Source: a virus. From it: DNA of 64,000 bases. This document shows, one piece after another, positions 4,121 to 47,763 of this stretch; positions within the stretch are counted from its first letter, which is position 1, and each line of letters begins with the position of its first letter. The notes beneath the pieces are model-generated. The model ran no database searches, had not been told where the DNA came from, and was given only the letters and a program-made list of their open reading frames with translations. The stretch is taken from positions 1-64,000 of the IMG/VR virus record IMGVR_UViG_3300017963_000188, one strand, 5' to 3'. Made by a program: the position numbers and the translations under genes.

Positions 4121-5242
4121 ATGAATCCATATAACATTCCATTTAATGAATTGTATCAAGGATTACTTGCTGAGGTTGAAAAGGGGTGGATTCGTAAAGT
4201 AGATGACCCTGAAGGTCCATTAGAGCTATATAACTACACAGAAGACTGTCAAGAACAACGAGTATGGAATCCCTCAACAATCGTTGCAAGGGGTCTTGTA
4301 CTTGATCCAATCAAGAAGAAGGTTGTAGCTCACCCCTTCCCAAAATTCTTCAATCTGGGGGAACCTGAGGCTGCTGAGATACACCACCCCATCAAGGTAA
4401 CAGAGAAGATGGATGGGTCTTTGGTAATAGCTTTCTGGGATGAATATCAAAATAAGTTCAGAACCGTGACCAGAGGTTCATTCACAAGTCCAGCAGCTCT
4501 ATCAGCTCAAGATATGTTACCTCAGAACCTGAACAAAGATTACACATATCTGCTTGAGTTGATTGGTCCTGATAATTGGGTTGTGGTGAAATATCCTGAT
4601 GATCGTCTCATTCTTCTCACTATCTACGATCAAATAGGTCATGAGTTGAATTGGCCTGATGTTCTTTTATGGGGTAGGAGGATGGGTGTTGATGTCGTTC
4701 AGACTCATGTTTTCGATACTGTTGGGGAGACATTGCAATATGCTCAAACTCTCCCAAATGACCGTGAAGGATTTGTAATACGTGATAGATATGGAAGTAG
4801 GGTAAAAGTAAAGGGTCCAGAGTATCTGAAGCTCCATAAATTCTTGTCTAGAATCACACCTAAGAATGTGTGGAGGTGGATGAGGCATGGTGAGGGGGTA
4901 GATCCAGAACGAATCCCTGACGAATTTTTGCCTGACTTCAAAGAACTCCAACGAATGTTTGAAGAGAAGTTTGAAGAAGTGTTGGGGCAGGTGGGTTTGT
5001 TGAAGGGAAAGGTATATCAGTTCTCTCGAAAAGAACTAGCACTGACTCTTAATGGAGGGAAATGGCCTCGTGGTTCAGAAGTTACGAGGTTTGAGAAGAA
5101 GTTTGCCTTCCACTGTTTTGATCTAGATTTCCCAGAGAAGGCTCGTACCATAGGGTCCAAACAACGTCGTAACGTGTTTGATGAGTTTGAGCCAAAAGGG
5201 AAACATCTCGATGGATTTGAACCACTCAATTCAATGATCTAA
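4121..5242 (+). CDS. T4 Rnl1-like RNA ligase
   Basis: 373 aa, the usual length of Rnl1 ligases (T4 RnlA is 374 aa). Nucleotidyltransferase motifs are in order: motif I KMDGS with the adenylated Lys96, upstream RGLVLDP (57-63), motif III/IIIa region YLLELIGPDNWVVVKY (143-158), motif IV EGFVIR (216-221) and motif V VKVKG with Lys229 and Lys231. The family joins 5'-phosphate and 3'-hydroxyl RNA ends with ATP. In T4 it repairs tRNA cut by host anticodon nucleases. It has its own promoter; no polynucleotide kinase is seen in the window, but a Thg1-like protein is encoded at 46.9 kb. High confidence in family, moderate in tRNA repair role. Confidence 0.92.
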   Translation: MNPYNIPFNELYQGLLAEVEKGWIRKVDDPEGPLELYNYTEDCQEQRVWNPSTIVARGLVLDPIKKKVVAHPFPKFFNLGEPEAAEIHHPIKVTEKMDGSLVIAFWDEYQNKFRTVTRGSFTSPAALSAQDMLPQNLNKDYTYLLELIGPDNWVVVKYPDDRLILLTIYDQIGHELNWPDVLLWGRRMGVDVVQTHVFDTVGETLQYAQTLPNDREGFVIRDRYGSRVKVKGPEYLKLHKFLSRITPKNVWRWMRHGEGVDPERIPDEFLPDFKELQRMFEEKFEEVLGQVGLLKGKVYQFSRKELALTLNGGKWPRGSEVTRFEKKFAFHCFDLDFPEKARTIGSKQRRNVFDEFEPKGKHLDGFEPLNSMI

Positions 5243-10851: not shown

Positions 10852-11049
10852 CATTTACACACTTATGTCTATGGGACAATTCCCCTATATATAAAATAGA
10901 TAAATAAAATACATATAGAAATATAGAATTGCCCTCGTCCACAAAACCCCATGAAACTCCACGAAACTCCACGAAACTCCAAATCTTTATAAAAAATAAA
11001 GAGAAGTATAGTCTTAGAGTGTTGATTATTTTTCACCAAGGAGGTTCAA
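10852..11049. promoter_or_regulatory. Intergenic region with 10-bp tandem repeats and a promoter
   Basis: AT-rich gap holding three tandem 10-bp units A(T/C)GAAACTCC (10951-10980), one helical turn apart. They are followed by a promoter with TCTTTA 10984-10989, 17-bp spacer and TATAGT 11007-11012. The repeats lie just upstream of the -35, a natural place for an activator or repressor. Confidence 0.5.
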
Positions 11050-26855: not shown

Positions 26856-26880
26856 TTTCAAAAAATAAAAAAATAAAAAC

Positions 26881-26909
26881 TACAAAATCCCAGAAAGTTT
26901 CAGTATAGA
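26881..26909 (+). promoter_or_regulatory. Left (plus-strand) promoter of structured island 1
   Basis: TACAAA 26881-26886, 17-bp spacer ending TTTCAG, TATAGA 26904-26909. Nearly the same sequence heads islands 2 and 3. Confidence 0.8.
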
Positions 26910-27077
26910 ATAGTAGCTGGGGGTAACGGTTACACGACCTAACCCCTCCAGGAGAAGGAACGCTTCGGGGGGATCTGTCCTGGGGAATATGGGACAGGTC
27001 GGTCCTCCCCATCCCCCTAGCCTTTCGACCGGGGGTATCTGTTCTCGAAACCCCTTAGGAGCATCAAGCTCTATATT
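26910..27077. ncRNA. Structured GC-rich island 1 between convergent promoters
   Basis: About 160 bp of G/C-rich, highly self-complementary DNA in an otherwise AT-rich genome. The main hairpin pairs GGGGGGATCTGTCC with GGGACAGGTC..CCTCCCC. CCTAA and TTAGG near the ends can close the structure. No ORF or ribosome binding site is visible. The segment AGGAACGCTTCGG..GATCTGTCC is the reverse complement, with one or two changes, of the matching part of island 3, so the core is inverted relative to islands 2 and 3. Could yield sense and antisense RNAs. Confidence 0.55.
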
Positions 27078-27106
27078 TATATACTGAGACTTTTCTGATT
27101 TTTAAA
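27078..27106 (-). promoter_or_regulatory. Right (minus-strand) promoter of island 1, sharing its -35 with a divergent promoter
   Basis: Read on the minus strand: TTTAAA (27101-27106), 17 bp ending CTCAG, TATATA (27078-27083). On the plus strand the same TTTAAA lies 18 bp from TATAGA 27125-27130 in front of the MYRY gene, so one palindromic box may serve both. Confidence 0.75.
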
Positions 27107-27147
27107 GTATTAATTAACATTCTATATAGAAACTTTGGAGGTAAACT

Positions 27148-27474
27148 ATGTACCGATATTCCAAGAGAGCTGACTATTTAACTCAAAAACATCCTGAACT
27201 AAGAAAGGGAAACACCATGTACCGTTATAGACAAGCCCGTAGAGTTAGAGCTGCCTCCTTATTAGAGATGCAGCGTGAATACAATCGTGGATTGTCTGAC
27301 CTCGAAAATGGGTATGCTGTCATGATGAAGTTGGCAGATACCTATGCTGCTGAATCTCAATATGTGAATCACCAAGCCCTCGATACTCTCAGAGAAGTGC
27401 TGGCTGACCTCCATGACCTGGTAAATGTCAACCTGAGAACTATTCAGACTCAACTTTGGGAGGATGCAAATTAA
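27148..27474 (+). CDS. MYRY-tagged small protein with doubled tag
   Basis: 108 aa. It begins MYRYSKRADYLTQKHPELRK and has a second Met at 27217 opening MYRYRQARRVRAAS, so the tag occurs twice. GGAGG precedes 27148 and AAAGGGAAA precedes 27217; either start may be used. The remainder is a helical, probably coiled-coil domain of about 75 aa. Function unknown; see the tag finding. Confidence 0.65.
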   Translation: MYRYSKRADYLTQKHPELRKGNTMYRYRQARRVRAASLLEMQREYNRGLSDLENGYAVMMKLADTYAAESQYVNHQALDTLREVLADLHDLVNVNLRTIQTQLWEDAN

Positions 27475-27607
27475 GCCATGGATACCCAAGAGCCATAAGA
27501 AAGCATCCCTAGAACGTATGAAAGGTTATGGTTCATATTCTCGTAGAAGTCGTAGAACCAGAATGGTGAGAGCTACAGTAGAATGGGGTGTAGACGAAGA
27601 GGAATGA
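27464..27607 (+). CDS. 47-aa basic protein with RxxRMVRA motif
   Basis: ATG 27464 follows GGGAGG and overlaps the previous gene by 11 nt. The middle (YSRRSRRTRMVRAT) matches the basic half of the MYRY tag (RxARRVRA), and almost the same string SRRSRKVRA occurs inside the protein at 42128-42670. Confidence 0.5.
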   Translation: MQIKPWIPKSHKKASLERMKGYGSYSRRSRRTRMVRATVEWGVDEEE

Positions 27608-27634
27608 AACAAAATCTATGTTTCGTCACTATTG

Positions 27635-27653
27635 TTAGCTAATGATGCTAACA
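27635..27653. promoter_or_regulatory. Inverted repeat in short gap
   Basis: GTTAGC and GCTAAC flank TAATGAT just before the AGGAG of the next gene. Operator or mRNA hairpin; uncertain. Confidence 0.3.
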
Positions 27654-27668
27654 CGATAGGAGATACAC

Positions 27669-27911
27669 ATGTACCGATACCGTAAAGCCCGAAGGGTGAG
27701 AGCCATGGGTATATTGCCTGATGAGATACTTGTTCGTTTGGATCAGCTAGAGAAAGATGCCAAGACGTTACAGAAGCAATACCAAGTCTTGGCAAATGAC
27801 ATGGCAATGAACCCACAGGTTGACCCTGAAGATGTTGATGACTTTATAGATGTAGTCAATGCTGTGAACGACCTCGTATATGATATCCAGAAGTATCGGA
27901 GAGGTTACTAA
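27669..27911 (+). CDS. MYRY-tagged small coiled-coil protein
   Basis: 80 aa starting MYRYRKARRVRAMG, the clearest form of the tag, followed by a helical acidic domain (LDQLEKDAKTLQKQYQVLAND). AGGAG upstream. Very similar in size and plan to the minus-strand protein at 41874-42125. Confidence 0.7.
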   Translation: MYRYRKARRVRAMGILPDEILVRLDQLEKDAKTLQKQYQVLANDMAMNPQVDPEDVDDFIDVVNAVNDLVYDIQKYRRGY

Positions 27912-27981
27912 CCCCCTGCAATAATTTATTTATAAATGTTACAAAAGACAGAATTTGTAACGTTTCATTGGAGATCTGAAG

Positions 27982-28368
27982 ATGAGACTAACAGCCAAAG
28001 ATTTGAGTCCTGAGACAGTGGACCTCATCCAAACAGCTAATGGTGATCCAGAGGTGGTGAAGTTACGTAAGGAACTGACCCTCTACAAAAAGAATGATCC
28101 AGGTCTGGCTATGATGAGAAGTAAGGTCACTACTTCCATTATGAAGTTCAATGAAGATTTGGGGAGAGCTTTGGATAAGTATAAAAGATTCCCTTCAGAC
28201 TCTGTTCTTGAAAAGTTAATTGACAAGAACTGGAAAAGAGCTGGGGTGGTTGATGACTTTGAAGGGATGTTCAAGGATTACTGCTTAGGTGTTATAGCTA
28301 AGGTGAAGAGTCTCAAGTCTACAGTGTCTGGTAAACTCAGAGCCCTTGCATCACAAATCTGTAAATGA
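27982..28368 (+). CDS. Hypothetical helical protein
   Basis: 128 aa, basic, all-helical. The C-terminus SGKLRALASQICK resembles the second shared motif (LRxLA-x-x-I). GGAG upstream; 4-nt overlap with the next gene. Confidence 0.65.
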   Translation: MRLTAKDLSPETVDLIQTANGDPEVVKLRKELTLYKKNDPGLAMMRSKVTTSIMKFNEDLGRALDKYKRFPSDSVLEKLIDKNWKRAGVVDDFEGMFKDYCLGVIAKVKSLKSTVSGKLRALASQICK

Positions 28369-28811
28369 ACTCCAGAGTAAAGCACATCATTGACACGATG
28401 GATCATTCAGATCCATTTGCCCCCAATCTGAATGAATGGCCCCTGGTGATAGTGACCTACCCCAAAGTATCCAGGCAGGTACTTATCGAGCATTTAAAAA
28501 ATGGAACTGACCTCACCCCCTTTGATAAGGTAGGGGAGTATTATGGTCTAGTGCTTGATAGTAGGAATGATGAACAGGCAACGGCTATGGAACGTAGAGC
28601 AGGGGCAGACTCTTTAGCTCAGATACAAAAACGTCTCGATAGGGGTGAGTGCAATCTTACATGTATAGCCATAGTGAACAATGCAGGTCCCTTCCTAAAG
28701 ACTGTACTCAACATCGTACTCATGCTCCAGAACATATCAATCCCAGTCAAGATGTTCAGTCATTTGCTTGAAGCAAAGTCCTGGGCTCTGAATGAAATTT
28801 ATAGAAAATAG
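28365..28811 (+). CDS. Hypothetical protein
   Basis: 148 aa, ATGA overlap with the preceding gene. Mixed alpha/beta sequence with ALIVT-like strands and a hydrophobic helix near the end (VLNIVLMLQNISIPV). Unrecognised. Confidence 0.65.
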   Translation: MNSRVKHIIDTMDHSDPFAPNLNEWPLVIVTYPKVSRQVLIEHLKNGTDLTPFDKVGEYYGLVLDSRNDEQATAMERRAGADSLAQIQKRLDRGECNLTCIAIVNNAGPFLKTVLNIVLMLQNISIPVKMFSHLLEAKSWALNEIYRK

Positions 28812-28814
28812 TTC

Positions 28815-28843
28815 TACAAAATCTCAGAAAGTTTCAGTATAGA
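28815..28843 (+). promoter_or_regulatory. Left promoter of structured island 2
   Basis: TACAAA 28815-28820, 17-bp spacer ending TTTCAG, TATAGA 28838-28843. Confidence 0.8.
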
Positions 28844-28981
28844 ATAATAGGGAGAGGGGACTTCAAAAGACCCCTGGACCCATGGGGAGGTCTGGTCTGT
28901 AGACAGTCCCTTGATAGATCTCCCCGAAGCCATGCTCCCTCAACCGGCCCCAGGTCTCGATACCCTTTTGCCTGTCATTAT
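28844..28981. ncRNA. Structured GC-rich island 2 between convergent promoters
   Basis: About 140 bp, no ORF. The core hairpin pairs GGGGAGGTCT with GATCTCCCC. An outer AGGGAG (near the left end) can pair with CTCCCT, and CCTGG with CCAGG. It shares CATGGGGAGGTCT and TCTCCCCGAAGC with the other two islands in the same order as island 3. Confidence 0.55.
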
Positions 28982-29010
28982 TATATACTGAAGAAAATCT
29001 AGATTTTAAA
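28982..29010 (-). promoter_or_regulatory. Right (minus-strand) promoter of island 2
   Basis: Minus strand: TTTAAA (29005-29010), 17 bp ending CTTCAG, TATATA (28982-28987). It faces the left promoter. Confidence 0.75.
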
Positions 29011-29020
29011 TAAAAAGTTC

Positions 29021-29049
29021 TACAAAATTCGAGAAAGTTTCAGTATAGA
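29021..29049 (+). promoter_or_regulatory. Left promoter of structured island 3
   Basis: TACAAA 29021-29026, 17-bp spacer ending TTTCAG, TATAGA 29044-29049. Confidence 0.8.
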
Positions 29050-29186
29050 ATAATAGAGGGAGGAACCGAAAAGGACCTGGGCTCATGGGGAGGTCTGTCT
29101 TAAGGGATACTCCCCTGGACAGATCCCCCCGGAGCGTTCCTACTTCGACTGGCTCCGAGTCTCAGTACCCTTTAACCAATCACTAT
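29050..29186. ncRNA. Structured GC-rich island 3 between convergent promoters
   Basis: About 135 bp. GGGGAGGTCTGTC pairs with GACAGATCCCCCC over 12 of 13 positions. AGGAAC near the left end pairs with GTTCCT to the right of the hairpin, while GGAGC next to GTTCCT can pair with GCTCC further on, which would make a pseudoknot. No ORF or ribosome binding site. Confidence 0.55.
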
Positions 29187-29215
29187 TATATACCGAAGCC
29201 AGATCAGATTTTAAA
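29187..29215 (-). promoter_or_regulatory. Right (minus-strand) promoter of island 3
   Basis: Minus strand: TTTAAA (29210-29215), 17 bp ending TTCGG, TATATA (29187-29192). Back to back with the plus promoter at 29238. Confidence 0.75.
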
Positions 29216-29237: not shown

Positions 29238-29266
29238 TTTAAAATCTCGTCTCGGTTCAGTATATA
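29238..29266 (+). promoter_or_regulatory. Phage-type promoter
   Basis: TTTAAA 29238-29243, 17-bp spacer ending TTCAG, TATATA 29261-29266, then AGGAGG. Drives the GC-rich genes 29284-30157. Confidence 0.8.
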
Positions 29267-29283: not shown

Positions 29284-29460
29284 ATGGCTAAGACCCACAA
29301 GGACCACAACTACTGGAACCCCAAGAAGGAGAAGAAGCCTGCCAGGAAGAGGACCAACCGTAAGGCCCGTCACCTGGCCAAGGCTGCCCTCACCGATGGT
29401 TGCTTCGATGCCCACCCCCTCACCTATAGCCCCAAGACCTCTGGCTGGGAGACCAACTAA
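29284..29460 (+). CDS. Small basic protein, probably highly expressed
   Basis: 58 aa from ATG 29284, 6 nt after AGGAGG. Lys/Arg-rich N-terminal two thirds (KKEKKPARKRTNRKARH). Codons are much more GC-rich than the genome. Possibly nucleic-acid binding; unrecognised. Confidence 0.7.
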   Translation: MAKTHKDHNYWNPKKEKKPARKRTNRKARHLAKAALTDGCFDAHPLTYSPKTSGWETN

Positions 29461-29461
29461 T

Positions 29462-29944
29462 ATGCCCAAGCGTAAGGAGCTGAAGGTCTATGTGCAGGGA
29501 ACGGTAACCCCCTCCAGGAAACTGGAGGTCGAGACCATGACCCGTGAGCTAGTAGCCAAGCTCTTCTCCACCCGTATGAGCAACACCCTCAGGATCACGG
29601 TCAAGCTCAGAGCATCCACTCTCAAGAAGAGTACCAACGGGGTGGCTTGCTTCAAGTCTCTCCAAGCTCATACCTCCCACAAGTCCAAGCACTACACCAT
29701 CACCATCCAACGTGACAGATGTGACAACTTCAAACGGACCCTGGCTCATGAGCTGGTACACGTCAGGCAGTTTGCTACGGGTCAACTCAGGTTCGGACCC
29801 AAGCCCTACACCAACAAGCGTGTCTGGGGGTGGTTCTGGAGGTCAGGACCAGGGGCTGCTCAGTATTATGAACAAGACTACCCCTACGTGGACCAGCCCT
29901 GGGAGATAGAGGCCAGGCAGGTCGCTCAGGGGGTGGTCTCTTAA
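29462..29944 (+). CDS. SprT-like zinc metallopeptidase-fold protein
   Basis: 160 aa from ATG 29462, one base after the previous stop. TLAHELVHVRQF gives H96-E97-x-x-H100, and PWEIEAR supplies a downstream acidic ligand (E148 or E150), as in SprT-like zincins common in phages. Same GC-rich codon use as its neighbours. Substrate unknown. Confidence 0.75.
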   Translation: MPKRKELKVYVQGTVTPSRKLEVETMTRELVAKLFSTRMSNTLRITVKLRASTLKKSTNGVACFKSLQAHTSHKSKHYTITIQRDRCDNFKRTLAHELVHVRQFATGQLRFGPKPYTNKRVWGWFWRSGPGAAQYYEQDYPYVDQPWEIEARQVAQGVVS

Positions 29945-46873: not shown

Positions 46874-47578
46874 TTATTCCTCCTCAGCTTCAAGCAAAGG
46901 TTCAATCAATTCCCGGTGCTTGGAGATCTCAGTATGGTGTTCACTGAAAATGGTTTGTTCTCCCTCAGTGGTTTTAACGATAAGGGTGCCATATTTCCAT
47001 TTGTTATCTAACTTAACCCATGGTTCATGCCCTTCATCTACAACCATCTTCTTGAGTTCAGCACAGCTCTTGTTTTGCATCTGCTTTTGGCTAAAATGCA
47101 TCTGTGCTAACATCTGCACAGAGTTAGTGATCCAATCTCTTTGCCTCCAGACAAAGTAGTTAGTCACATCATGCCTGGGGATGTTGAATGCACGACCATC
47201 GAAGTAAGCCAGTCGGTTCGAGGTATTCTTGATGTAGTAATTGAAATGAGTCGCAGCCATAGCAGCACTGACTGAACAAATCTTTTGAATGTTGTTGTCA
47301 AACCAGGCATCGGTCACAAAACGCTTGTAATCGACCAGCAGGACCGATATCTCATCAGACTGGACAAAGGCACACTGAGCCCCCTGGATTCGTTTCAGGA
47401 GCTGTTCTGAGGTCCTCACCATAGCCCAATTAAGGTCCTCACTGAACTTTGGGTATTTACGAGTGAAGGTATGGAAAGCCACCCCGTCTACCCTTACGAT
47501 GACAGGAGTTCTACGTACCAGGTAGAATCGTTGCCGGTCCTCATAGTTCTTTTTCATTCTGTCACCAAGGCTCTTCAT
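46874..47578 (-). CDS. Thg1-like tRNA-His guanylyltransferase family protein
   Basis: 234 aa from ATG 47578, with GGGAGG upstream and an ATGA overlap with the previous gene. VIVRVDGVAFHTFTR (D31, G32) and QSDEIS (D75, E76) match the Thg1 metal-binding residues (D29, G30, D76, E77 in the eukaryotic enzyme), and the HINNLYNT-like region is replaced by THFNYYIKNTSNRL. The family adds nucleotides in the 3'-5' direction, either G-1 to tRNA-His or, in Thg1-like proteins, repair of 5'-truncated tRNAs. With the RNA ligase it may form a tRNA repair set; inference. Confidence 0.85.
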   Translation of the reverse strand: MKSLGDRMKKNYEDRQRFYLVRRTPVIVRVDGVAFHTFTRKYPKFSEDLNWAMVRTSEQLLKRIQGAQCAFVQSDEISVLLVDYKRFVTDAWFDNNIQKICSVSAAMAATHFNYYIKNTSNRLAYFDGRAFNIPRHDVTNYFVWRQRDWITNSVQMLAQMHFSQKQMQNKSCAELKKMVVDEGHEPWVKLDNKWKYGTLIVKTTEGEQTIFSEHHTEISKHRELIEPLLEAEEE

Positions 47579-47763
47579 TTCTCGACCTCCCATTCCTCGT
47601 ATTGATGGTGAATTCCAGTCTCTTCTTTGAGTTGAGCACATCTTTTTTCTGCTAGCTCTTCAGTAGCACAGACTGTTACAACACAAGATATATCACAACC
47701 ATAGTCTTGTTTGTATTCTATTCGTTCAATGACATAGACGATAAAATCATCCCTATCATCCAT
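47575..47763 (-). CDS. Hypothetical small protein
   Basis: 62 aa from ATG 47763 (GGAG upstream). Beta-alpha-beta-like with several Cys (YGCDISCVVTVCATEE). Overlaps both neighbours. Confidence 0.6.
   Translation of the reverse strand: MDDRDDFIVYVIERIEYKQDYGCDISCVVTVCATEELAEKRCAQLKEETGIHHQYEEWEVEK

What the first reader, a model, noticed from the sequence alone, without database searches (positions are those of the whole stretch)
26881..29215. Three structured GC-rich islands, each enclosed by face-to-face copies of the phage promoter
Islands at 26910-27077, 28844-28981 and 29050-29186 have no ORF, are far more GC-rich than their surroundings and fold into a strong central hairpin with outer pairings. 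Each has a TACAAA-17-TATAGA promoter on the left (+) and a TTTAAA-17-TATATA promoter on the right (-), both firing inward, so both strands of the same roughly 150 bp would be transcribed. The cores share GGGGAGGTCT/AGATC(C)CCCC and flanking AGGAAC/GTTCCT-type pairs. A triplicated sense/antisense RNA unit of this kind is not one I know. It could be regulatory RNA pairs, a transcription-primed replication origin, or a mobile unit with promoter-like ends.
Basis: partly seen in the sequence, partly recalled or inferred. Interest (0 to 1): 0.82.

Follow-up and report, generated by a model that had tools for sequence, protein, structure and literature searches.

The report
Phage RNA genes with facing promoters
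A giant bacterial virus carries four related, non-coding, folded-RNA sequences, and three of them are enclosed by two of the virus's own promoters pointing inwards, so that an RNA and its exact complement (antisense RNA) are probably made from the same 150 bases; no relative was found elsewhere, and what the RNAs do is not known.

Summary
A promoter profile trained only on 16 gene promoters of this 358-kb phage record finds all six island promoters inside the range of gene promoters, with 0-1 hits in controls. In the whole record only these three places have such promoters facing inward. (1) A fourth, truncated copy lies at about 337.1 kb, without the antisense promoter. (2) The cores are one RNA family, and the core of island 1 is inverted relative to islands 2 and 3 between similar flanks. 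(3) Compensatory changes and one-sided G-U pairs mark one strand as the structured RNA: + for island 1 and the fourth copy, - for islands 2 and 3. Single-sequence folding is no better than shuffled DNA; the case for structure rests on four paralogues. GC-richness is not special: the next genes are as GC-rich. Best reading: a phage non-coding RNA (about 130-165 nt) limited by a cis-encoded, fully complementary antisense RNA. Such pairs are known from plasmids; a multi-copy, orientation-flipped unit with phage promoters at both ends is a new variant. Function is inferred.

The parts
26881..26909 (+). Island 1 left promoter (sense-directed): TACAAA-17-TATAGA
   Evidence: Profile score 39.6 bits; pattern hit
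26912..27074 (+). Island 1 RNA, sense strand = +; stem A 26916-26950, core hairpin B 26967-27010
   Evidence: Covariance model + strand 94.3 bits, - strand 5.3 bits; opposite-strand match to island 3
27078..27106 (-). Island 1 right promoter (antisense-directed): TTTAAA-17-TATATA
   Evidence: Profile score 45.5 bits
28815..28843 (+). Island 2 left promoter (antisense-directed): TACAAA-17-TATAGA
   Evidence: Profile score 39.5 bits
28850..28980 (-). Island 2 RNA, sense strand = -; stem A 28942-28976, core hairpin B 28884-28925
   Evidence: Covariance model 89.4 bits on -, 9.1 on +
28982..29010 (-). Island 2 right promoter (sense-directed): TTTAAA-17-TATATA
   Evidence: Profile score 31.5 bits
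29021..29049 (+). Island 3 left promoter (antisense-directed): TACAAA-17-TATAGA
   Evidence: Profile score 37.9 bits
29055..29185 (-). Island 3 RNA, sense strand = -; stem A 29147-29181, core hairpin B 29087-29130
   Evidence: Covariance model 109.7 bits on -, 19.3 on +
29187..29215 (-). Island 3 right promoter (sense-directed): TTTAAA-17-TATATA
   Evidence: Profile score 23.5 bits, within the range of gene promoters but low
29238..29266 (+). Ordinary gene promoter of the same class just downstream (not part of a unit), followed by TAGTAGGAGG and the ATG at 29284
   Evidence: Profile and pattern hits

Best explanation
Each island is a gene for a phage non-coding RNA of about 130-165 nt, transcribed from the phage's own genome-wide promoter class. 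It has a 5' hairpin (stem A) and a long core hairpin (stem B). A second promoter of the same class sits at the 3' end and makes the exact complement. The antisense RNA, from the promoter with the better consensus match in every unit, pairs with and limits the sense RNA, as antisense RNAs do in plasmid copy control, or the two polymerases interfere by collision. The free sense RNA acts in trans on phage or host targets. Because both ends carry promoters, an inversion of the core between them (island 1) keeps both RNAs. Shown: copies, promoter sequences, orientation, pairing conserved on one strand. Inferred: transcription, antisense control, trans action.
For: Six promoters of gene-promoter quality. 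Four paralogues form one family: local alignments in the right relative orientation score 28-64 against shuffle maxima of 20-28; the covariance model finds only these four in 358 kb, plus one weak antisense shadow. Five pairs with two-sided changes against 1.7 in shuffles; sliding the partner lowers pairing from 85% to at most 64%. RNAalifold of four copies: sense z -4.25 (0/200), antisense z -0.57. In stem A of islands 2, 3 and the fourth copy there are nine G-U and no A-C cells, which marks the strand. The antisense promoter outscores the sense promoter in all three units. No ORF with a ribosome-binding site.
Against: Only four paralogues, no independent homologue; model and structure were derived from the same sequences. 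Single-sequence folding not significant. No terminator at either end, so the 3' ends are undefined. The fourth copy has no antisense promoter. No CsrA, ProQ or Hfq relative in the phage. No expression data; a consensus match is not promoter strength, and the score gap is only 3-6 bits over the core positions.
Confidence: 0.5

Rival explanations
1. The sense RNA alone is functional; the inward promoter at its 3' end is a by-product of duplication or of the inversion and has no role of its own.
For: The fourth copy has only the sense promoter; structure conservation is clearest on one strand.
Against: In all three full units the antisense promoter keeps the full consensus and matches it better than the sense promoter, although the cores have diverged by a fifth to a quarter.
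Confidence: 0.2
2. The units act by transcription itself: clustered, colliding promoters work as a roadblock, an insulator or a sink for a limiting phage transcription factor; the RNA is incidental.
For: Seven promoters of one class lie within 2.4 kb; no terminators separate the neighbouring genes. The phage has two proteins with a sigma region-4-like domain, which could be such a factor.
Against: A roadblock needs no conserved RNA pairing, yet compensatory changes and strand-marked G-U pairs exist.
Confidence: 0.12
3. The two complementary RNAs are meant to pair with each other: a perfect 130-165 bp double-stranded RNA that occupies RNase III or blocks or decoys a host RNA sensor.
For: Both strands would be made from promoters of similar quality; the complement is perfect by construction, and orientation is free.
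Against: A dsRNA source needs no conserved fold of one strand.
Confidence: 0.08
4. Transcription-primed replication origin, with convergent primers.
For: ColE1 uses a convergent RNA pair to control a primer (PMC12361487); A+T-rich tract at 26862-26880.
Against: Four copies at two sites some 48 kb or more apart; GC skew keeps its sign on both sides of the islands and the cumulative skew peaks only near 41 kb; nothing specific to origins found.
Confidence: 0.06
5. Small mobile or invertible element with promoter-like ends.
For: Islands 2 and 3 are tandem copies 205 bp apart; island 1 has an inverted core next to a left promoter 86% like those of islands 2 and 3.
Against: The ends are the phage's ordinary promoters, present at some 30 other sites; no target duplication seen, no transposase linked; inversion by homologous recombination between inverted promoters suffices.
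Confidence: 0.04

Closest known systems
ColE1 RNA I / RNA II and related plasmid copy-control antisense RNAs (R1 CopA/CopT)
   Same: Convergent transcription over the same short DNA; a structured RNA of about 100 nt fully complementary to part of the other; the antisense RNA is the more strongly made (PMC12361487).
   Different: Single copy at a plasmid origin or rep leader; here four copies, no rep gene, no evidence of a primer, and the core exists in both orientations.
Phage antisense RNAs such as P22 sar, lambda OOP, P1 c4 (own knowledge)
   Same: Short phage RNAs made antisense to another phage transcript.
   Different: Those target a protein-coding mRNA; here both strands are non-coding.
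Jumbo-phage non-coding RNAs of phiKZ (about 100 and 180 nt, PMC8545117)
   Same: Structured non-coding RNAs of similar size from a giant phage.
   Different: Those derive from 3' and 5' UTRs of mRNAs; these have their own promoters, at both ends, and are multi-copy.
Rfam IMES-5 (RF02995)
   Same: Best Rfam match of island 3, + strand, 24.3 bits.
   Different: Gathering score is 96.1 bits; the match includes the promoter, runs on the strand with the weaker conserved pairing, and islands 1 and 2 do not match. Treated as chance.

Membership tests
cis-encoded sense/antisense RNA pair (plasmid copy-control type) | Two convergent promoters over the same short DNA | tested here: met
   By sequence only:
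cis-encoded sense/antisense RNA pair (plasmid copy-control type) | Structured target RNA whose fold is conserved | tested here: met
   four paralogues only
cis-encoded sense/antisense RNA pair (plasmid copy-control type) | Target RNA is a replication primer or rep mRNA leader | tested here: not met
   No ORF with a ribosome-binding site inside; flanking proteins match no replication family; no origin evidence
cis-encoded sense/antisense RNA pair (plasmid copy-control type) | Both RNAs are made and pair | not testable with these tools
   No expression data
Type I toxin-antitoxin (hok/sok-like) | Short hydrophobic toxin ORF with ribosome-binding site on one strand | tested here: not met
   ORF scans of both strands; the similar MGR... 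frames of islands 1 and 3 have a stop in island 2
Any Rfam RNA family | Score above the gathering cut-off | tested here: not met
Transcription-primed origin (T4/ColE1 type) | Replication start at the site | not testable with these tools
   Indirect only: no skew change

The most novel reading that the evidence does not exclude
A multi-copy, orientation-independent RNA gene unit: a folded phage RNA flanked at both ends by the phage's own inward promoters, so that sense and perfect antisense are always co-produced and the core can flip without losing either; used by a giant phage as a self-limiting regulatory or host-directed RNA.
Probability: 0.3. Interest if true: 0.75.

Novelty: new variant of a known kind. 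Interest (0 to 1): 0.5.

Why it matters
Non-coding RNAs of giant phages are barely charted. If both strands are made, this is a compact natural sense/antisense RNA device that stays functional when inverted, found in several copies in one virus and nowhere else in the collections searched; it would show antisense control of a non-coding RNA, not of a gene or a replicon, in a phage.

Tried and rejected
Coding: similar 'MGRSVLRDTPLDRSPRSVPT' and 'MGRTDLSHIPQDRSPRSVPS' frames on the antisense strand of islands 3 and 1 are explained by nucleotide conservation (stop in island 2, no ribosome-binding site). tRNA/tmRNA: none in the window. Rfam IMES-5: chance-level. Relatives: blastn against phages, promoter and core patterns in viral contigs, core pattern in genome contigs followed by the covariance model (the one 20-bit hit, L140, shares the seeded 17-mer), protein-based relatives. 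Only a 186-kb record of the same virus (G001) carries the fourth copy. Pattern TTCAGTATANA-gap-inverse hits in six viral contigs look like conserved low-GC coding sequence, lack the -35 element and do not match the model. A loose whole-genome pattern was uninformative (88 hits, control 97). RNA chaperones CsrA, ProQ, Hfq not found in the phage.

Full report
Setting. The window is bases 1-64000 of a 358,038-base virus record, a giant phage with no close relative in the phage collection: its helicase and a MoxR-type ATPase find only relatives below 60% identity, at best about 41%. No match to the RNA polymerase beta-subunit family was found, but two proteins with a sigma region-4-like domain were, so transcription probably uses host polymerase with phage factors (inference).

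Promoters. Aligning 16 gene promoters of this phage outside the islands gives TTTAAAAA-N11-TCAGTATA(G/T)A (-35 TTTAAA, 17 bases, -10 TATA(G/T)A), usually followed by TAGGAGG, the ribosome-binding site of the gene. A matrix from these finds 16 sites of at least 23 bits in the window; five Markov sequences and the reversed window gave at most one hit each, none above 18.5 bits. All six island promoters are among the 16. A genome-wide pattern search shows that inward-facing pairs within 300 bp occur only at the three islands.

Copies and orientation. A fourth copy lies at about 337094-337211, in front of the helicase gene; it is also in the 186-kb record G001. It is truncated within the core hairpin and has the sense promoter only. 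Local alignments in both relative orientations show that island 1 and the fourth copy are on the same strand, islands 2 and 3 on the other (one search finds the 60-nt inverted match of islands 1 and 3, 78%). The left promoters of islands 1-3 are 86-90% alike whichever way the core points, so the core was probably inverted between the promoters, most simply by recombination between the inverted promoter repeats (inference).

Structure and strand. In the orientation I1+, I2-, I3-, I4+ the RNAs begin with stem A (8 pairs, an AAA/GG internal loop, 4 pairs, a 6-nt loop), then a short linker and the core hairpin B GGGGRGATCTGTC...GACAGACCTCCCC. Of 28 pairs, five carry changes on both sides (shuffles 1.7), 85% of cells pair, and sliding the partner lowers this to at most 64%. 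Stem A of islands 2, 3 and the fourth copy has nine G-U and no A-C cells, as expected if this strand is the RNA. RNAalifold on all four gives z -4.25 for this strand and -0.57 for the other; with I2/I3 or I1-I3 only, the antisense strand is also somewhat better than shuffles (-2.2 to -2.3), because core hairpin B is nearly palindromic. Single sequences do not fold better than shuffles. With four paralogues this is suggestive, not proof.

Mechanism. The sense and antisense promoters lie so that each RNA would start about where the other ends. The antisense promoter matches the consensus better than the sense promoter in all three units (core positions: 34.8 against 30.9, 29.7 against 26.9, 30.6 against 24.2), reminiscent of ColE1, where the antisense RNA I is in large excess (PMC12361487). 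I therefore favour a phage non-coding RNA limited by its own antisense RNA or by colliding transcription. No terminators beyond chance were found, no target is known, and no RNA chaperone of the CsrA, ProQ or Hfq families is encoded. Rivals: sense RNA only, promoter cluster as roadblock or sink, deliberate double-stranded RNA, origin, mobile unit.

Known relatives. None by sequence: no Rfam family, no match in phages, viral contigs or genome contigs. By plan it resembles plasmid antisense pairs; the phiKZ non-coding RNAs (PMC8545117) are UTR-derived. In the literature searches made I found no report of a multi-copy RNA unit enclosed by inward phage promoters, but those searches cover open-licence papers only.

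Verdict. It is a new, so far virus-specific RNA family with an unusual promoter arrangement; function is open.

Noticed in passing
window 27148, 27669, 42125(-), 43293(-), 44950(-), 54247(-), 17543: Several otherwise different proteins share the N-terminus MYRY(R/S/K/P/N)..., in some cases MYRYRKARRVRA; possibly a common targeting or packaging signal.
   Followed up: partly
G000:C1:186407-188300 (L083, L084): Two proteins with a sigma region-4-like domain next to a gene that looks like NusG/KOW and a clamp-loader-like gene; candidates for the factors that read the phage promoter (NusG and clamp-loader readings by eye).
   Followed up: partly
genes behind the TTCAGTATA promoter, e.g. window 29284-29944, L061, L062: Some genes directly behind this promoter class look clearly more GC-rich than the rest of the phage, perhaps codon selection for high expression (window genes measured; L061 and L062 by eye).
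   Followed up: no
window 46874-47641 (-) and 4121-5239 (+): A tRNA-His guanylyltransferase (Thg1) and a T4-Rnl1-like RNA ligase, possibly an RNA-repair set.
   Followed up: no
window 10886-10991: Short tandem-like repeats of GGAGTTTCGT in an A+T-rich stretch.
   Followed up: no
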